The position numbers were made by a program, and so were the translations under genes. Under the pieces are notes generated by a model. It saw only the letters and a program-made list of their open reading frames with translations. It did no database searches and was not told the DNA's origin. From the NCBI RefSeq assembly GCF_029428875.1, contig NZ_JAJSOO010000001.1, forward strand, positions 4,588,001 to 4,652,000: a stretch of DNA of 64,000 bases, written 5' to 3'. Origin of the DNA: Streptomyces sp. JH34. GTDB taxonomy: Bacteria > Actinomycetota > Actinomycetes > Streptomycetales > Streptomycetaceae. Shown in pieces: positions 35,016-59,639 of this stretch (position 1 is the stretch's first letter; each line of letters begins with the position of its first letter).

Positions 35016-35252
35016 GGCGTCGCGTCCCGTCGTCAGGGGGCCGTCGTGGTGGGCACCACGAGGCGGTCGTGAGTCTGTCAGTGCGTATGACCGAGGGCGG
35101 AGGCAGAACTCATCGGCGGACGCGCGACAGCCCTCAGAGAACCCGGAACAAAGGGGTGCCGGGTGTCAACGCCCGTGAAATACTTGTGTGTTCAGAGACC
35201 AGCCCCTTGCGGGGCGAGGGCGATGGGGCCGATGAGGCCAATGGGGGCGGGA

Positions 35253-35792
35253 ATGGCGGACGGGGCGGACACGGGCGCGCGGGAGCCGGTGCGGGACAAA
35301 GTCGAGTTACGGATCGCCGTGAGCGGGACGCACACCCGGCGCGACGACCTCGAAGCCCTCCACACCTGGCTGAAGACCGCGCCGCTCCTGGAGGACGCGC
35401 TCGAACGGGGCGAGGCCGGCCTGGCGCGTGAGGACTCGCTCACACAGACCGAGGCGATGAGCGGGGAGCTGATCCAGGACATCATCCTCGTCGTCTCCGT
35501 CGAGGTGGCGCGCTCCGTGTCCGAGAACGCGTGGCGGTCCGTGGAGACCTGGCTGCGCAACCGACGCCGGTTCGCCGACCCCGAGGAGACACCCCGCGTC
35601 ACCCTCGACGGGCCGTCCGAGGGCCCGGGCTCCGGCCTGAGCCGCGACACAGGCAGCGCTGCCACGGGCACGGGGGACACCGGCAGCCGCGGCACCCGCG
35701 CAGGCCGCGACGGGGGCCCGGACGCCGTGCCGGGTTCCGGATCCGGCGGGCCGGCCCGGCCGCGCGGCGGCGACGAGCCCGGTCAGGACTAG
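35253..35792 (+). CDS. EACC1 family (effector-associated constant component) protein
   Basis: This protein of about 179 residues has an EACC1-type core at about 15-115: VELRIAVSGTHTRRDDLEALHTWL, a variable acidic middle, then a helix ending VARSVSENAWRSVETWLRNRR and a short strand RVTLDG. The remainder is a Gly/Arg/Asp-rich disordered tail. EACC1 was named in computational surveys of NTP-dependent conflict systems as an adaptor found beside effectors such as caspases. The start is uncertain: ATG 35253 fits the family, but ATG 35241 and GTG 35163 are in frame. The caspase gene starts 5 nt after its stop. Confidence 0.78.
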   Translation: MADGADTGAREPVRDKVELRIAVSGTHTRRDDLEALHTWLKTAPLLEDALERGEAGLAREDSLTQTEAMSGELIQDIILVVSVEVARSVSENAWRSVETWLRNRRRFADPEETPRVTLDGPSEGPGSGLSRDTGSAATGTGDTGSRGTRAGRDGGPDAVPGSGSGGPARPRGGDEPGQD

Positions 35793-35797
35793 CGGCC

Positions 35798-38440
35798 GTG
35801 CCGCCGTACGACGCGCGCGGCGAGGCGAACAGAGCCAAGCGGCACCGAGCCGTGCTGATCGGGGTGGAGCACTACGAGGGCGCCCGGAACGACCTTCCGG
35901 CCGTCGCCAGGAACCTCCGGCTCATGCGGGAGGCGCTGACCGCCGAACGCACCGGCATGCTCCGGCCGGACGACCTCGTGGAGGTCCCCTCCGACGGCGG
36001 CCCGGCGGCCACCGTCGGCCCCCTGGGGGTGCGCGCCGCCCTGGCCGCGGCCCGCGAGGAGGTCGACGGCCTGCTGGTGGTCTACTTCGCCGGGCACGGC
36101 ATCGTCCGCCCCGACGGCAGCGACCTCAACCTGATGTTCACCGAATCCCGGGTTACCAGGGACCGGCGCCACCCCTTCGTGGACACCCTGTCCTGGCGCG
36201 ACGACATCATGCCCGAGCTGCGCTACGCCCGCGCCGACTGGGTCGTCGTCATCCTCGACTGCTGCTTCGCCGGAAACGCACTCTGGGCCTTCAGCCCCGC
36301 CGCCGGACAGAACTTCGCGCTGCTGACCGCGGCGGAACCGGGCGTGGAGATCCCGTCCGGCGATCCCGCCACGGGCACGGAGTTCACGGCCTCCCTGCAC
36401 CGGCTGCTGACCACGGGGCAGGGGGAGCCGGTCACCTTCACGCGGATCGTCACCGGCGTCCGCCAGGCCATGGCGCCGTACAAGGCCGTCGACGGGCATC
36501 CGTGGGTCCCGGACGAGAGGCGGCACGGCGACGACGTGGTGCTCGCGCGCGCCGCGGGCCCCGGGCCCGCGGTGAAGCCGGGGGGACACCGCTCGCAGAA
36601 CCGGGCCACGAGATGGGGGCGGCGACCGGCCGCCCTCCTCCGCCGTGTGACGTGGACGGCCGCCGTCGTGACGGCGGCCGTCGTCGCTCTGGTCGGCGGA
36701 GGGACGTGGTACCTCCTGGGCGCTTCCGCCGACGGCGCCTGTGCTTCGCCCCTCGAGCTGCGGGTGCTCACCGACCCCGATCTCGGACCCACGGTGCAGA
36801 AGGCCGCCGACGCCTATCCCAAGAGGGACGCCCACGGCTGCCGGTCCGTCGGCATCAACGTGTACGACGCCAAGGCCACCGACGCGGTGTCCGCCCTCCG
36901 TTCCTCCTCGCTCTGGCAGGAACCGCCTGCCGCCTGCCCGGCCTCCGGCGCCTGCCCGCGGCCCCAGCGGGACATCGGCGCGCAGCCCGACATCTGGATC
37001 CCGGCCGCCGGCAGCGCATGGCAACGGGCCACGGCCGAAGGGGCGGGCGGCGGTACCGGGAAGCCGTCCGCGGGCACGGGAAGGAGTGTCGTGGAGCTCG
37101 ACCGCCTGGGTTCCGTCGCCTACACGCCGATGGTCCTCGGGGTGCCGGACACCCTGCTTCTGGCGCAGAGCCTGCAGACCGACGATCCTCTCGGCAAGAT
37201 CATCACCGGGCTGGAGGCCGCCCAGGAGGTCGACGTCCTGCGTCCCGACCCCGAGGTCACGGAGGCCGCTCTGCTGGCGACCGACGCGCTCTACGCCACC
37301 TCCGCCGACGGGCACGCGGCCACGGTCGAACAGGGCATGGCGGGGGTGCTGCGGCCCATGCCCTCCACCGCGCGGGAACTGATGTGCGCCCTCGCCGACG
37401 GTACGCACAACGACCTGGAGGACCGGGCGGCGGTGCTCGTGCCGGAGCAGACCCTGGCGCAGTTCAACCTCTCGGCGGGCGAGGCCGGCCGCCCCGCCTG
37501 CGCGACGGAGGCGCTGGCGCACCGGGTGGCCCACTACCCCTCCGACGTGCCGATGCTGGACCTGCCCTTCGTCCGGGTCACCTGGGCCGGCGCCGACCGG
37601 GACGCCGACGCCCGCAAGGCTGCCGTCGAGGACTTCTACGACTGGCTGACCACGGACCGGGAGGCCCAGAAGTGCTTCACCGACGACGGTTTCCGCGGCG
37701 TCGGCAAGGGCGGGCCGGCGCAGCCCGGTGACGACTCGGTGCTGCGCTCCGAGGACAACACGACGGCCGTGCGCGAACGGATCCCCACGACCGGCCCGGA
37801 CGCCGACGCGTCGGCGTCACTGACCGAGACCCTGAGCCGCTACCGGGGTGCGCTCGGGCCCGGCCGGGTGCTCTACCTCCTCGACGACTCGACCTCGATG
37901 GCGGACAAACGGCTCTGGGACGGCACCGGGGGCGCCAAGGAACTGGTGGCCCGCTCGATGGGCTCCCTGGGGTCCAAGGACGCGTACGGGGTGTGGACGG
38001 CCGCGGTCGACGCGAAGAAGCCGATGACGGAACTCGTGGCTCTCGGGCCGCACGCCAGGGCCGGTGCGCAGAAGGCCGTCGCCGGCGCCGGGACAGCCGC
38101 CTTCGACGCGCGGATCGGGGAGGGGCTCGGCGCGGCGCTCACGGCCCTGCGCGGTGACTCCGCCGCGCCCGAACAGCCGCGGCTCCTCGTGCTGGTCACC
38201 GACGGCGAGGACTTCGAAGCGGTCGGGAGGGGCGAACAGGGGAGACTGGTCGCCGAGGCGGGGAGGACACCGCCCGTCAGGGTCGTGACGGTGTCGCTGC
38301 AGGACGGTGCCTGCACACGCGGCCGGTTCGGCGACCGGCTGGCCGTGGCGAGCGGCGGACGCTGCCTGGATCCCGGCGACGACATCGCGGCCGAACTGGC
38401 GGCGGAGGTCGCCAAGACCGGTACGGGGGACGCGGAATGA
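35798..38440 (+). CDS. Caspase-like protease with membrane helix, extracellular solute-binding and vWA domains
   Basis: This is an 880-residue single-pass membrane protein. The N-terminal peptidase C14 domain (about 15-255) has the catalytic His100 in VVYFAGHGIV and Cys156 in ILDCCFAGNAL. A membrane helix follows at about 284-306. The external part (about 310-665) looks like a periplasmic-binding-protein fold (PDIWIPAAGSAW, VAYTPMVLGVPDTL). A von Willebrand A domain follows, with an intact MIDAS DDSTS at 696-700 and VLVTDGEDF near 808. The fusion would place a death protease inside the cell and a ligand/metal-binding sensor outside. The GTG at 35798 has AGGA upstream; the longer frame overlaps EACC1. 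It overlaps the next gene by ATGA. Confidence 0.82.
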   Translation: MPPYDARGEANRAKRHRAVLIGVEHYEGARNDLPAVARNLRLMREALTAERTGMLRPDDLVEVPSDGGPAATVGPLGVRAALAAAREEVDGLLVVYFAGHGIVRPDGSDLNLMFTESRVTRDRRHPFVDTLSWRDDIMPELRYARADWVVVILDCCFAGNALWAFSPAAGQNFALLTAAEPGVEIPSGDPATGTEFTASLHRLLTTGQGEPVTFTRIVTGVRQAMAPYKAVDGHPWVPDERRHGDDVVLARAAGPGPAVKPGGHRSQNRATRWGRRPAALLRRVTWTAAVVTAAVVALVGGGTWYLLGASADGACASPLELRVLTDPDLGPTVQKAADAYPKRDAHGCRSVGINVYDAKATDAVSALRSSSLWQEPPAACPASGACPRPQRDIGAQPDIWIPAAGSAWQRATAEGAGGGTGKPSAGTGRSVVELDRLGSVAYTPMVLGVPDTLLLAQSLQTDDPLGKIITGLEAAQEVDVLRPDPEVTEAALLATDALYATSADGHAATVEQGMAGVLRPMPSTARELMCALADGTHNDLEDRAAVLVPEQTLAQFNLSAGEAGRPACATEALAHRVAHYPSDVPMLDLPFVRVTWAGADRDADARKAAVEDFYDWLTTDREAQKCFTDDGFRGVGKGGPAQPGDDSVLRSEDNTTAVRERIPTTGPDADASASLTETLSRYRGALGPGRVLYLLDDSTSMADKRLWDGTGGAKELVARSMGSLGSKDAYGVWTAAVDAKKPMTELVALGPHARAGAQKAVAGAGTAAFDARIGEGLGAALTALRGDSAAPEQPRLLVLVTDGEDFEAVGRGEQGRLVAEAGRTPPVRVVTVSLQDGACTRGRFGDRLAVASGGRCLDPGDDIAAELAAEVAKTGTGDAE

Positions 38441-39873
38441 CGTACGGCGACCGTCGGTCCGGCCACCGCCGGGCCAGGACGGCGGTGGTGCTCTGCTGTC
38501 TCCTCGCGTTCGTCTCCGCGGCCTGCACCGGCGGGTCCGGGGGTTCCGGGGAGTCCGGCCAGGACGGAACGGCGGCGGGCCCCATCGTCGTCGCCAGCGG
38601 GCTCGACGTCACCGGTTCCGGCAGTGTGCGGCAGCAGTTGATAGAGGAGTGGAACCGCAGGCACGCCGGATCGAAGGACCAGCAGGCCAAGCTCGTGGAG
38701 CTGCCCGGTGGCGCGGACCAGCAGCGCAGCCAGCTCCTCGGCGCCCTGCAGTCCGGCAGTGCCCGCTACGACGTGGTGAACCTCGACATCACCTGGATCC
38801 CCGAGTTCGCCGAGGCCGGACTGATCAGCCCGCTGCCCGTCGCGGGGAGCGGCGCCGCCACCGAGGACGCCGACTTCATCCGGCAGGTCCACGCCACCAC
38901 CGTGTGGAAGGGCCGCTCCTACGCCCGGCCGTTCAACACCGACGTGGGGCTGCTCTACTACCGGCCCGACCTCCTGACCCAGGCCGACATAGAGGCGGAC
39001 AAACAGCCCACCGCCAACTGGACGTGGGACCAGCTCTACTCCTCGGTGAAGACCCTTGGCCTGAACCCGGTCCGCCGCGACGAACGGGCGGGCTGGACCA
39101 CGCAGTTGAAGCAGTACGAGGGGCTGACCGTCAACACCGTCGAGGCGTTCGCCGACGCCGGGGTCCACCTCACCGACAGCGACGGCCGGTACAGCTCCGG
39201 CCCGGAGGACCTGAAGAAGGGGCTCGACTCGCTCCTCGACCGCGTCGGCCGGGGCCGCGTCCAGCCCGCCGCGCTCACCTCCGACGAGACGGCGTCCCTC
39301 ACCGACTTCGCCGAGGGCCGTGCCGTCTTCCTGCGCCACTGGCCCTACGCCTACGGAGCCCTGGGGAGCCTGATGAAGGCGAAGGAGTACGCCGTGAACC
39401 GGCTGCCGGGGAAAGCCGTGCTAGGCGGGCAGAACCTCGCCGTCACCGCCGACTCGCCGCGCGCCGGGAACGCCCGGGCCCTCATCACCTTCCTGACCTC
39501 GCGGGAGAGCGAGCGCTGCCTGCTCGACGCGGGCTTCGCCGCGACCCGGGCCTCCGTCTACGGCAGCACGCCGAAGCCGTGCTGGCCACGCGTTGCCGCC
39601 GCCCTCCGCCCTGCCGGGGGCTCGTCGAAGGCGGCGGCGACGGAGGCAGGGACCACGGGGCGACAGGGGACCCAGGCGCGCGAAGCGTACATCCGGCTCC
39701 TCGGCGCGGCGCTGACCGAGGCCGTGCAGCGGCCGCGCACCCCGTACTACGGGGCGTTCACCCAGGTCCTGCAGTCCCACGTGCACGCGCTGCTGGCCGC
39801 CGAGAGACCCGACACCGCGGCGGCCGCCGACCATCTCGACCACGCACTCCGGGACGTGTTCGCGGGCAGGTGA
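38437..39873 (+). CDS. Orphan extracellular solute-binding lipoprotein
   Basis: This 478-residue lipoprotein has a twin-Arg-rich start, hydrophobic core and SAAC lipobox (Cys30), then a family 1-type sugar-binding fold (ARYDVVNLDITWIPEFAEAGLI near 108, ARPFNTDVGLLYYRPDLL near 165, YAYGALGSLMKAKEY near 310). No ABC permease or ATPase is adjacent. It is coupled to the caspase gene by a 4-bp overlap and shares its external fold type, so it is more likely a sensor subunit of the cassette than a transporter part. The last ~90 residues form a helical extension beyond the usual SBP length. Confidence 0.82.
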   Translation: MTYGDRRSGHRRARTAVVLCCLLAFVSAACTGGSGGSGESGQDGTAAGPIVVASGLDVTGSGSVRQQLIEEWNRRHAGSKDQQAKLVELPGGADQQRSQLLGALQSGSARYDVVNLDITWIPEFAEAGLISPLPVAGSGAATEDADFIRQVHATTVWKGRSYARPFNTDVGLLYYRPDLLTQADIEADKQPTANWTWDQLYSSVKTLGLNPVRRDERAGWTTQLKQYEGLTVNTVEAFADAGVHLTDSDGRYSSGPEDLKKGLDSLLDRVGRGRVQPAALTSDETASLTDFAEGRAVFLRHWPYAYGALGSLMKAKEYAVNRLPGKAVLGGQNLAVTADSPRAGNARALITFLTSRESERCLLDAGFAATRASVYGSTPKPCWPRVAAALRPAGGSSKAAATEAGTTGRQGTQAREAYIRLLGAALTEAVQRPRTPYYGAFTQVLQSHVHALLAAERPDTAAAADHLDHALRDVFAGR

Positions 39874-55029: not shown

Positions 55030-55348
55030 GACAAGCGATTCTAGTCAACGCCGCTCGTCCCGCGTCGCGGCCTCCCGGCATGCGGATGCGGAGGGAACCC
55101 GCGGCTGGGCCGTCCGGGAAGGAGGCCTGGTGCCGCCGGTCGGCCGACGCGGTCGACGTCATGGGCACCCGCCCGCACGCGGTGGCCCTGCATGACTCCT
55201 GCCTGTGCGCACGGCGGTGGGGTCTCTGCCCGTGACACCGCTGATCCGTGTCCGTCCCTCGCCCCGGAGACTCGCGGATGCCCGCTCCGCGCCGTCGTGC
55301 ACAGCAGCGAGGCCCCCTCACACTCGGTGAGGGGGCCTCGCTTTGGCG
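55030..55348. other. Gap upstream of the GvpU-like gene, with tRNA terminator
   Basis: About 320 bp. Apart from the tRNA terminator at 55307-55341 it holds only shadow frames. It should contain the promoter of the minus-strand gene at 55029. Confidence 0.5.
55307..55341 (-). terminator. Terminator of the first tRNA-Lys gene
   Basis: A perfect 15-bp stem (GCGAGGCCCCCTCAC and its complement) with a 5-nt loop lies 7 nt beyond the 3' end of the tRNA on the minus strand. Confidence 0.85.
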
Positions 55349-55422
55349 TGCGCCGTCAGGGACTCGAACCCCGGACCCGCTGATTAAGAGTCAGCTGCTC
55401 TAACCAACTGAGCTAACGGCGC
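55349..55422 (-). tRNA. tRNA-Lys (anticodon CTT), copy 1
   Basis: The minus strand folds as a 74-nt tRNA: acceptor GCGCCGT/ACGGCGC with discriminator A, D-arm GCTCAGTTGGTTAGAGC, anticodon loop CTCTTAA giving CTT, and T-arm with GGTTCGAGTCC. No CCA is encoded. It is identical to the copy at 59566. Confidence 0.97.
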
Positions 55423-59557: not shown

Positions 59558-59565
59558 GGTGTCTG

Positions 59566-59639
59566 TGCGCCGTCAGGGACTCGAACCCCGGACCCGCTGA
59601 TTAAGAGTCAGCTGCTCTAACCAACTGAGCTAACGGCGC
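59566..59639 (-). tRNA. tRNA-Lys (anticodon CTT), copy 2
   Basis: Base-for-base the same 74 nt as the copy at 55349, including acceptor, anticodon CTT and discriminator A. The identity also extends for nine bases on the 5' side (CCTGCTGAC on the plus strand) before diverging. Same orientation as copy 1. Confidence 0.97.

What the first reader, a model, noticed from the sequence alone, without database searches (positions are those of the whole stretch)
35798..38440. One polypeptide joins a caspase, a membrane helix, a periplasmic-binding-protein fold and a vWA domain
The sequence shows an intact His100/Cys156 dyad, a single strong hydrophobic helix at about 284-306 and an external vWA MIDAS (DDSTS 696-700). 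The SBP-plus-vWA ectodomain is known from Streptomyces proteins of unknown role; its fusion to a protease on the other side of the membrane makes it look like a receptor protease. Metal-dependent vWA binding could dimerise the ectodomains and so the caspases.
Basis: partly seen in the sequence, partly recalled or inferred. Interest (0 to 1): 0.75.

Follow-up and report, generated by a model that had tools for sequence, protein, structure and literature searches.

The report
Membrane-spanning caspase with paired binding lipoprotein
A Streptomyces gene really does encode a caspase-type protease joined through one membrane helix to a binding domain outside the cell, and its relatives nearly always travel with the same two partner genes, so it looks like a receptor-controlled version of a predicted bacterial cell-death or defence system first described in 2020.

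Summary
ORF 35798-38440 (880 aa) reads caspase (about 1-252), one membrane helix (about 287-306), a type II solute-binding fold (about 315-660) and a vWA domain (about 680-876). AlphaFold2 and structure comparison support all three folds. The His100/Cys156 dyad and the DxSxS motif are invariant in 49 full-length homologues, and no second membrane helix is seen. The gene before it encodes EACC1 in all 57 homologous loci. The gene after it encodes a maltose/trehalose-binding-type lipoprotein in 54 of 55 loci with enough sequence. This places it in the EACC1-caspase 'System 4' of Kaur et al. 2020 (PMC7159879), which already mentions TM plus extracellular PBP variants and, separately, vWA variants. 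It is therefore a new variant of a known kind. What goes beyond that paper's text: the near-obligate third gene, the PBP-vWA combination, a caspase-to-membrane linker of 39-275 residues, stable chromosomal location, and a model in which EACC1 is a soluble ferredoxin-like domain rather than a membrane helix. Best reading: ligand binding outside brings ectodomains together and activates the caspases by proximity. The direction of signalling is inferred, not shown.

The parts
35165..35195 (+). conserved upstream element GTCAACnnnCGTGAAATAnTnnnnnGTTC, possible promoter or operator
   Evidence: Aligned in the 12 near relatives, with few changes; single match in window, chance expectation 0. Function inferred.
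35253..35792 (+). EACC1 gene (likely start ATG 35253; the open frame with a start codon begins at 35163)
   Evidence: PF19953 E 0.0024, below cut-off; 29 of 34 orthologues match PF19953, best 1.5e-6; present before the caspase in 57/57 loci; AF2 core is beta-alpha-beta-beta-alpha-beta
35798..38440 (+). caspase-TM-SBP-vWA gene, 880 aa
35798..36553 (+). cytoplasmic caspase domain, residues about 1-252; dyad H100/C156; NCBIfam EACC1-associated caspase
   Evidence: (NF047832 E 3.3e-32, 111.7 bits, below its 140-bit cut-off)
36554..36655 (+). flexible linker, residues about 253-286; caspase-to-helix length 39-275 aa across homologues
   Evidence: pLDDT under 50 at 257-288; lengths
36656..36715 (+). 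single transmembrane helix, residues about 287-306
   Evidence: net charge +4.5 on the N side, -0.6 on the C side (means of 49)
36740..37777 (+). extracellular type II SBP domain, residues about 315-660
37835..38425 (+). extracellular vWA domain, residues about 680-876; MIDAS DDSTS 696-700 and D802
38437..39873 (+). orphan solute-binding lipoprotein (SBP_bac_1), start overlaps the caspase stop (ATGA)
   Evidence: Pfam E 1.8e-26; nearest solved structures maltose/trehalose-binding proteins, LpqY; follows the caspase in 54/55 assessable loci

Best explanation
This is a three-gene EACC1-caspase operon whose variable module is a membrane-spanning sensor. The EACC1 protein and the caspase lie in the cytoplasm. 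The SBP-vWA ectodomain and the lipoprotein lie outside. The lipoprotein, probably a binder of a sugar or a sugar-containing compound, and/or the receptor's own SBP domain captures a ligand. Liganded ectodomains then associate with each other or with the lipoprotein, perhaps through the vWA domain. Because caspase and membrane helix are joined by a long disordered linker, the signal is most likely passed by bringing caspases together (proximity activation), not by a rigid conformational push. EACC1 is the cytoplasmic partner: regulator, adaptor or first substrate. The active caspase cleaves its own linker or cytoplasmic targets, leading to cell death or growth arrest of the hyphal compartment. 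Shown by computation: domain order, invariant catalytic residues, single helix and topology signals, operon conservation. Inferred: ligand class, proximity activation, direction of signalling, role of EACC1, outcome.
For: Anatomy. Topology: one helix with positive side toward the caspase; six invariant cysteines in the ectodomain (315, 348, 530, 568, 839, 856), while the caspase domain has only C155 and C156, as expected if the ectodomain is outside with disulfides. Operon: EACC1 57/57, lipoprotein 54/55, start at or within a few bases of the caspase stop in most of the loci listed. The lipoprotein has no permease gene beside it and is the best-conserved part between clades: LP 51.6%, SBP 42.8%, vWA 39.0%, caspase 34.7%, EACC1 25.7%. 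A conserved outside and faster-changing inside fits a sensor of one constant ligand better than a variable effector. No lipoprotein like this one was found beside the stand-alone SBP-vWA proteins, so its linkage goes with the caspase form. Linker 39-275 aa.
Against: No ligand, cleavage or phenotype is known. Kaur et al. propose the opposite direction: EACC1 senses and the caspase releases the C-terminal domain. Lipoprotein-receptor contact is not shown; the distance-matrix correlations among modules are all high (0.82-0.95) and cannot separate contact from shared ancestry. The MIDAS Thr is lost in most homologues, which weakens metal-dependent vWA binding. Catalytic residues do not prove activity.
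Confidence: 0.5

Rival explanations
1. Inside-out model (after Kaur et al. 2020): EACC1 senses an invader inside the cell, the caspase is activated and cuts its own linker, and the C-terminal part is the deployed effector.
For: Published proposal for EACC1 systems. EACC1 is present in every locus and the disordered linker is a natural cleavage site.
Against: Cutting the cytoplasmic linker would leave the ectodomain anchored by its own helix, the same layout as the stand-alone TM-SBP-vWA proteins, so nothing is obviously released outside. The ectodomain is more conserved between clades than the caspase, unlike a variable effector. The model leaves the conserved lipoprotein without a role.
Confidence: 0.27
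2. A developmental or stress-signalling protease in Streptomyces, not an anti-invader system: external nutrient or cell-wall sugar status is read and the caspase processes a regulator.
For: Locus is chromosomal and largely syntenic within each clade (SEC-C gene downstream in 10 of the near relatives; shared upstream genes in up to 24 of 37 distant loci); none on plasmids or phages at the limits used; lipoprotein of the maltose/trehalose-binding type.
Against: Present in only 14 of 61 Streptomyces genomes sampled, which is patchy for a core developmental function. EACC1 systems as a class are predicted conflict systems.
Confidence: 0.2
3. The caspase has no signalling link to the ectodomain; the fusion only anchors it at the membrane.
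For: The linker is long, disordered and very variable in length.
Against: The same elaborate ectodomain and the same lipoprotein gene are kept across Streptomycetaceae; simple anchoring needs neither.
Confidence: 0.03

Closest known systems
EACC1-caspase two-gene system ('System 4'), Kaur et al. 2020 eLife 9:e52696 (PMC7159879)
   Same: EACC1 gene 5', N-terminal caspase in the 3' gene, variable C-terminal part; the paper mentions variants with TM helices followed by an extracellular PBP domain, and variants with vWA.
   Different: Here the C-terminal part combines PBP and vWA, and a third gene for a binding lipoprotein is almost always present; the paper's text describes two genes and 'lipoprotein' occurs there only in a reference title. 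The EACC1 model is a soluble fold, not a membrane helix.
Stand-alone TM-SBP-vWA proteins of other actinobacteria (L105, L106, L108)
   Same: Short cytoplasmic tail, one helix, SBP_bac_11 and/or VWA domains in the same order.
   Different: No caspase, and no related binding lipoprotein found in the flanking DNA searched.
Binding-protein-assisted receptors such as LuxP-LuxQ or ChvE-VirA (from general knowledge)
   Same: An orphan solute-binding protein paired with a single receptor that signals across the membrane.
   Different: The output there is a histidine kinase; here it is a caspase. Functional analogy only.
Plant metacaspases and MALT1 paracaspase
   Same: Caspase fold (6w8r Z 22.5, MALT1 3uo8 Z 21.8) and an Asp two residues before the catalytic Cys (D154, invariant), which in those families goes with cleavage after Arg/Lys (general knowledge).
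   Different: Bacterial, membrane-tethered, EACC1-associated; specificity not tested.

Membership tests
EACC1-caspase system (Kaur et al. 2020) | EACC1 gene directly 5' of the caspase gene | tested here: met
   57/57 loci; PF19953 matches 29/34 members; the window copy alone is below the gathering score (18.3 against 23.6 bits)
EACC1-caspase system (Kaur et al. 2020) | EACC1-associated type caspase at the N-terminus of the 3' gene | tested here: met
   NF047832 E 3.3e-32 over 17-225, 111.7 bits, below the curated 140-bit cut-off; Peptidase_C14 above its cut-off
EACC1-caspase system (Kaur et al. 2020) | Variable C-terminal module, differing between systems | tested here: met
   Same genome carries a second EACC1 plus caspase pair with an unrelated C-terminal part (L079:3003-5010)
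EACC1-caspase system (Kaur et al. 2020) | EACC1 contains a conserved transmembrane helix | tested here: inconclusive
   AF2 gives a ferredoxin-like core with the hydrophobic stretch split over a strand and a helix; hydropathy of the window copy only 1.44; one model from 34 sequences
EACC1-caspase system (Kaur et al. 2020) | Counter-invader function through autoproteolysis | not testable with these tools
   A prediction in the paper; no experiment found in the searched library
Catalytically competent C14 peptidase | His/Cys dyad | tested here: met
   H100 and C156 49/49
Catalytically competent C14 peptidase | Proteolytic activity | not testable with these tools
   Needs an assay
Type II solute-binding fold | SBP fold between residues 310 and 665 | tested here: met
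   (5um2 Z 23.0, rmsd 4.0, 288 aligned)
vWA domain with complete MIDAS | DxSxS plus Thr plus Asp | tested here: inconclusive
   DxSxS and D802 invariant; Thr position about 766 is Thr in only 9/49 by this alignment
ABC-transporter binding protein (lipoprotein gene) | Permease and ATPase genes alongside | tested here: not met
   No permease family among the neighbouring ORFs scanned; the next gene downstream is a SEC-C-motif gene on the other strand
Catalogued anti-phage defence system (PADLOC) | Match to a specific system model | tested here: inconclusive
   Only a generic caspase model, E 5.7e-5; nothing for EACC1 or the lipoprotein

The most novel reading that the evidence does not exclude
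A bacterial counterpart of a death receptor: an external ligand, presented by a dedicated binding lipoprotein, directly triggers a cytoplasmic caspase fused to the receptor through one membrane helix, with a soluble EACC1 adaptor as the inner partner.
Probability: 0.35. Interest if true: 0.85.

Novelty: new variant of a known kind. Interest (0 to 1): 0.52.

Why it matters
EACC1-caspase systems are predicted death or immunity modules of multicellular bacteria, and no experimental trigger was found in the papers searched. This variant carries a recognisable extracellular binding module and a dedicated binding protein, so its trigger can be sought directly with purified domains. If ligand binding outside activates the caspase, bacteria would have a one-polypeptide receptor-to-caspase route, and the question of what EACC1 systems sense becomes testable. 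The soluble EACC1 model, if right, also changes the published picture of the constant component.

Tried and rejected
Chance or artefact of a long open frame: rejected, because the fusion stays in one frame in 50 of 57 loci and 7 are interrupted by frameshifts or gaps in mostly draft genomes. Second helix returning the vWA inside: rejected. Catalytically dead caspase: no sign in this family. Mobile element: no hit in plasmids or phages, and flanks are conserved within clades. Distance-matrix comparison of modules to show contact: uninformative, all correlations high. Searching PDB by sequence with the single protein: no hit. EACC1 fold search: no Foldseek hit under E 0.001, best VIA Z 7.9 and a spread of ferredoxin-like folds, so no specific relative is claimed; a TRADD-N/RRM relation was considered but not supported by a hit. 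The vWA hit in the same genome (L078/L080) is by eye a magnesium/cobalt-chelatase-like protein. The 1230-aa frame in L107 probably has a spurious N-terminal half. Dimer or complex prediction could not be run.

Full report
Observation. The open frame at 35798-38440 on the + strand encodes 880 residues. Pfam finds Peptidase_C14 at 15-236 and SBP_bac_11 at 321-633. The vWA domain falls below Pfam's reach in this copy but is found in 18 of 44 homologues. AlphaFold2 on a 44-sequence alignment gave mean pLDDT 84.9, with low confidence only in the linker (257-288), around the membrane exit (298-313), a loop (416-426) and the last four residues. Structure comparison matched residues 315-689 to sulfate-binding proteins (Z 23.0), 15-254 to metacaspase 4 (Z 22.5) and 680-876 to a bacterial vWA structure (Z 22.3).

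Conservation. A scan of GTDB genomes returned 74 related loci, all Streptomycetaceae by record title. In 57 of them both the caspase and the ectodomain are covered; in 50 these lie in one open frame and in 7 they are interrupted. Across 49 aligned full-length proteins, including this one, H100, D154, C155, C156, D696, S698, S700, D728 and D802 are invariant. The usual third MIDAS residue, Thr, is not conserved, so a full metal site cannot be assumed in the family.

Topology. The family-averaged hydropathy has one clear peak, 1.91 at residues 289-307; the ectodomain never exceeds 0.82. The 20 residues before the helix carry on average +4.5 net charge and the 15 after it -0.6. Six cysteines are invariant in the ectodomain and only C155/C156 occur in the caspase part. 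This fits a cytoplasmic caspase and an external SBP-vWA part. Stand-alone relatives in other actinobacteria have the same helix-SBP-vWA layout with a short cytoplasmic tail.

Surroundings. The gene before the caspase, likely 35253-35792, is EACC1: weak for the window copy alone (E 0.0024), clear for the family (29 of 34 members match PF19953). A model built from near relatives found it before the caspase in 56 loci, and a family-wide model found the last one. NCBIfam assigns the caspase to 'caspase, EACC1-associated type' at E 3.3e-32, below its curated cut-off. The gene after it, 38437-39873, overlaps the caspase stop codon by ATGA and encodes an SBP_bac_1 protein (E 1.8e-26) whose nearest solved relatives are maltose- and trehalose-binding proteins including LpqY. 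It is present in 54 of 55 loci whose contig extends far enough; the remaining one keeps only a remnant. A lipobox-like motif was found in 37 of 48 by a simple pattern. No transporter genes accompany it.

Distribution. 14 of 61 sampled genomes of the genus carry the ectodomain. In a phylum sample, the only strong hits were in the same genus; weaker hits elsewhere were stand-alone SBP-vWA proteins or partial matches. No plasmid or phage carries a relative at the limits used. Flanking genes are shared within each clade. The operon is thus a stable chromosomal locus with patchy presence.

EACC1. Kaur et al. describe EACC1 as one conserved membrane helix with short extensions. The AlphaFold2 model of this clade's EACC1 gives a well-supported beta-alpha-beta-beta-alpha-beta core in which the hydrophobic stretch is split between the third strand and the second helix. 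In the window copy that stretch has hydropathy of only 1.44 and contains Glu and Asp. Fold comparison gave only generic ferredoxin-like matches. I take this as a lead that EACC1 may be a soluble domain, not as proof.

Mechanism. The long, disordered, length-variable linker (39-275 residues) argues against rigid transmission through the membrane and for proximity activation or tethering. Between the two clades the lipoprotein and SBP are more conserved than the caspase and EACC1, which suits a constant external cue. The published inside-out model remains possible, but cutting the cytoplasmic linker would not release the ectodomain. I give the outside-in receptor model 0.5.

Comparison and novelty. 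Kaur et al. 2020 (PMC7159879) already report EACC1-caspase proteins with TM helices followed by an extracellular PBP domain and, separately, vWA-bearing variants. The finding is therefore a variant of a known predicted system. The near-obligate lipoprotein gene, the PBP-vWA combination, the family-wide conservation analysis and the EACC1 model go beyond the text of that paper; its source data tables were not examined.

Noticed in passing
L079:3003-5010 (own genome, C1 about 2343502-2345509): A second EACC1 plus caspase pair in the same genome; the C-terminal part looks Sel1/TPR-like by eye but had no Pfam hit beyond the caspase.
   Followed up: partly
window 35165-35195: A well-conserved element GTCAACnnnCGTGAAATAnTnnnnnGTTC upstream of EACC1 in the 12 near relatives, possibly a promoter of an alternative sigma factor or an operator.
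   Followed up: partly
L108:1-7370: Two stand-alone TM-SBP-vWA genes near a gene that looks like PspA by eye, in another actinobacterium; may hint at a membrane-stress role of the module.
   Followed up: no
EACC1 family (A3), window 35253-35792: Predicted ferredoxin-like fold conflicts with the published description as a transmembrane helix.
   Followed up: partly
window 55348-55422 and 59565-59639: Two tRNA-Lys genes with the same CTT anticodon about 4.2 kb apart on the minus strand.
   Followed up: no
L064-L075: A different group of long (about 1300-1800 aa) Streptomyces caspase proteins with related caspase domains, without a detectable EACC1 gene beside them.
   Followed up: partly
L009, L011, L042, L047, L051, L061, L063: Seven homologous loci have the fusion broken into different frames; sequencing error or decay not separated.
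   Followed up: no
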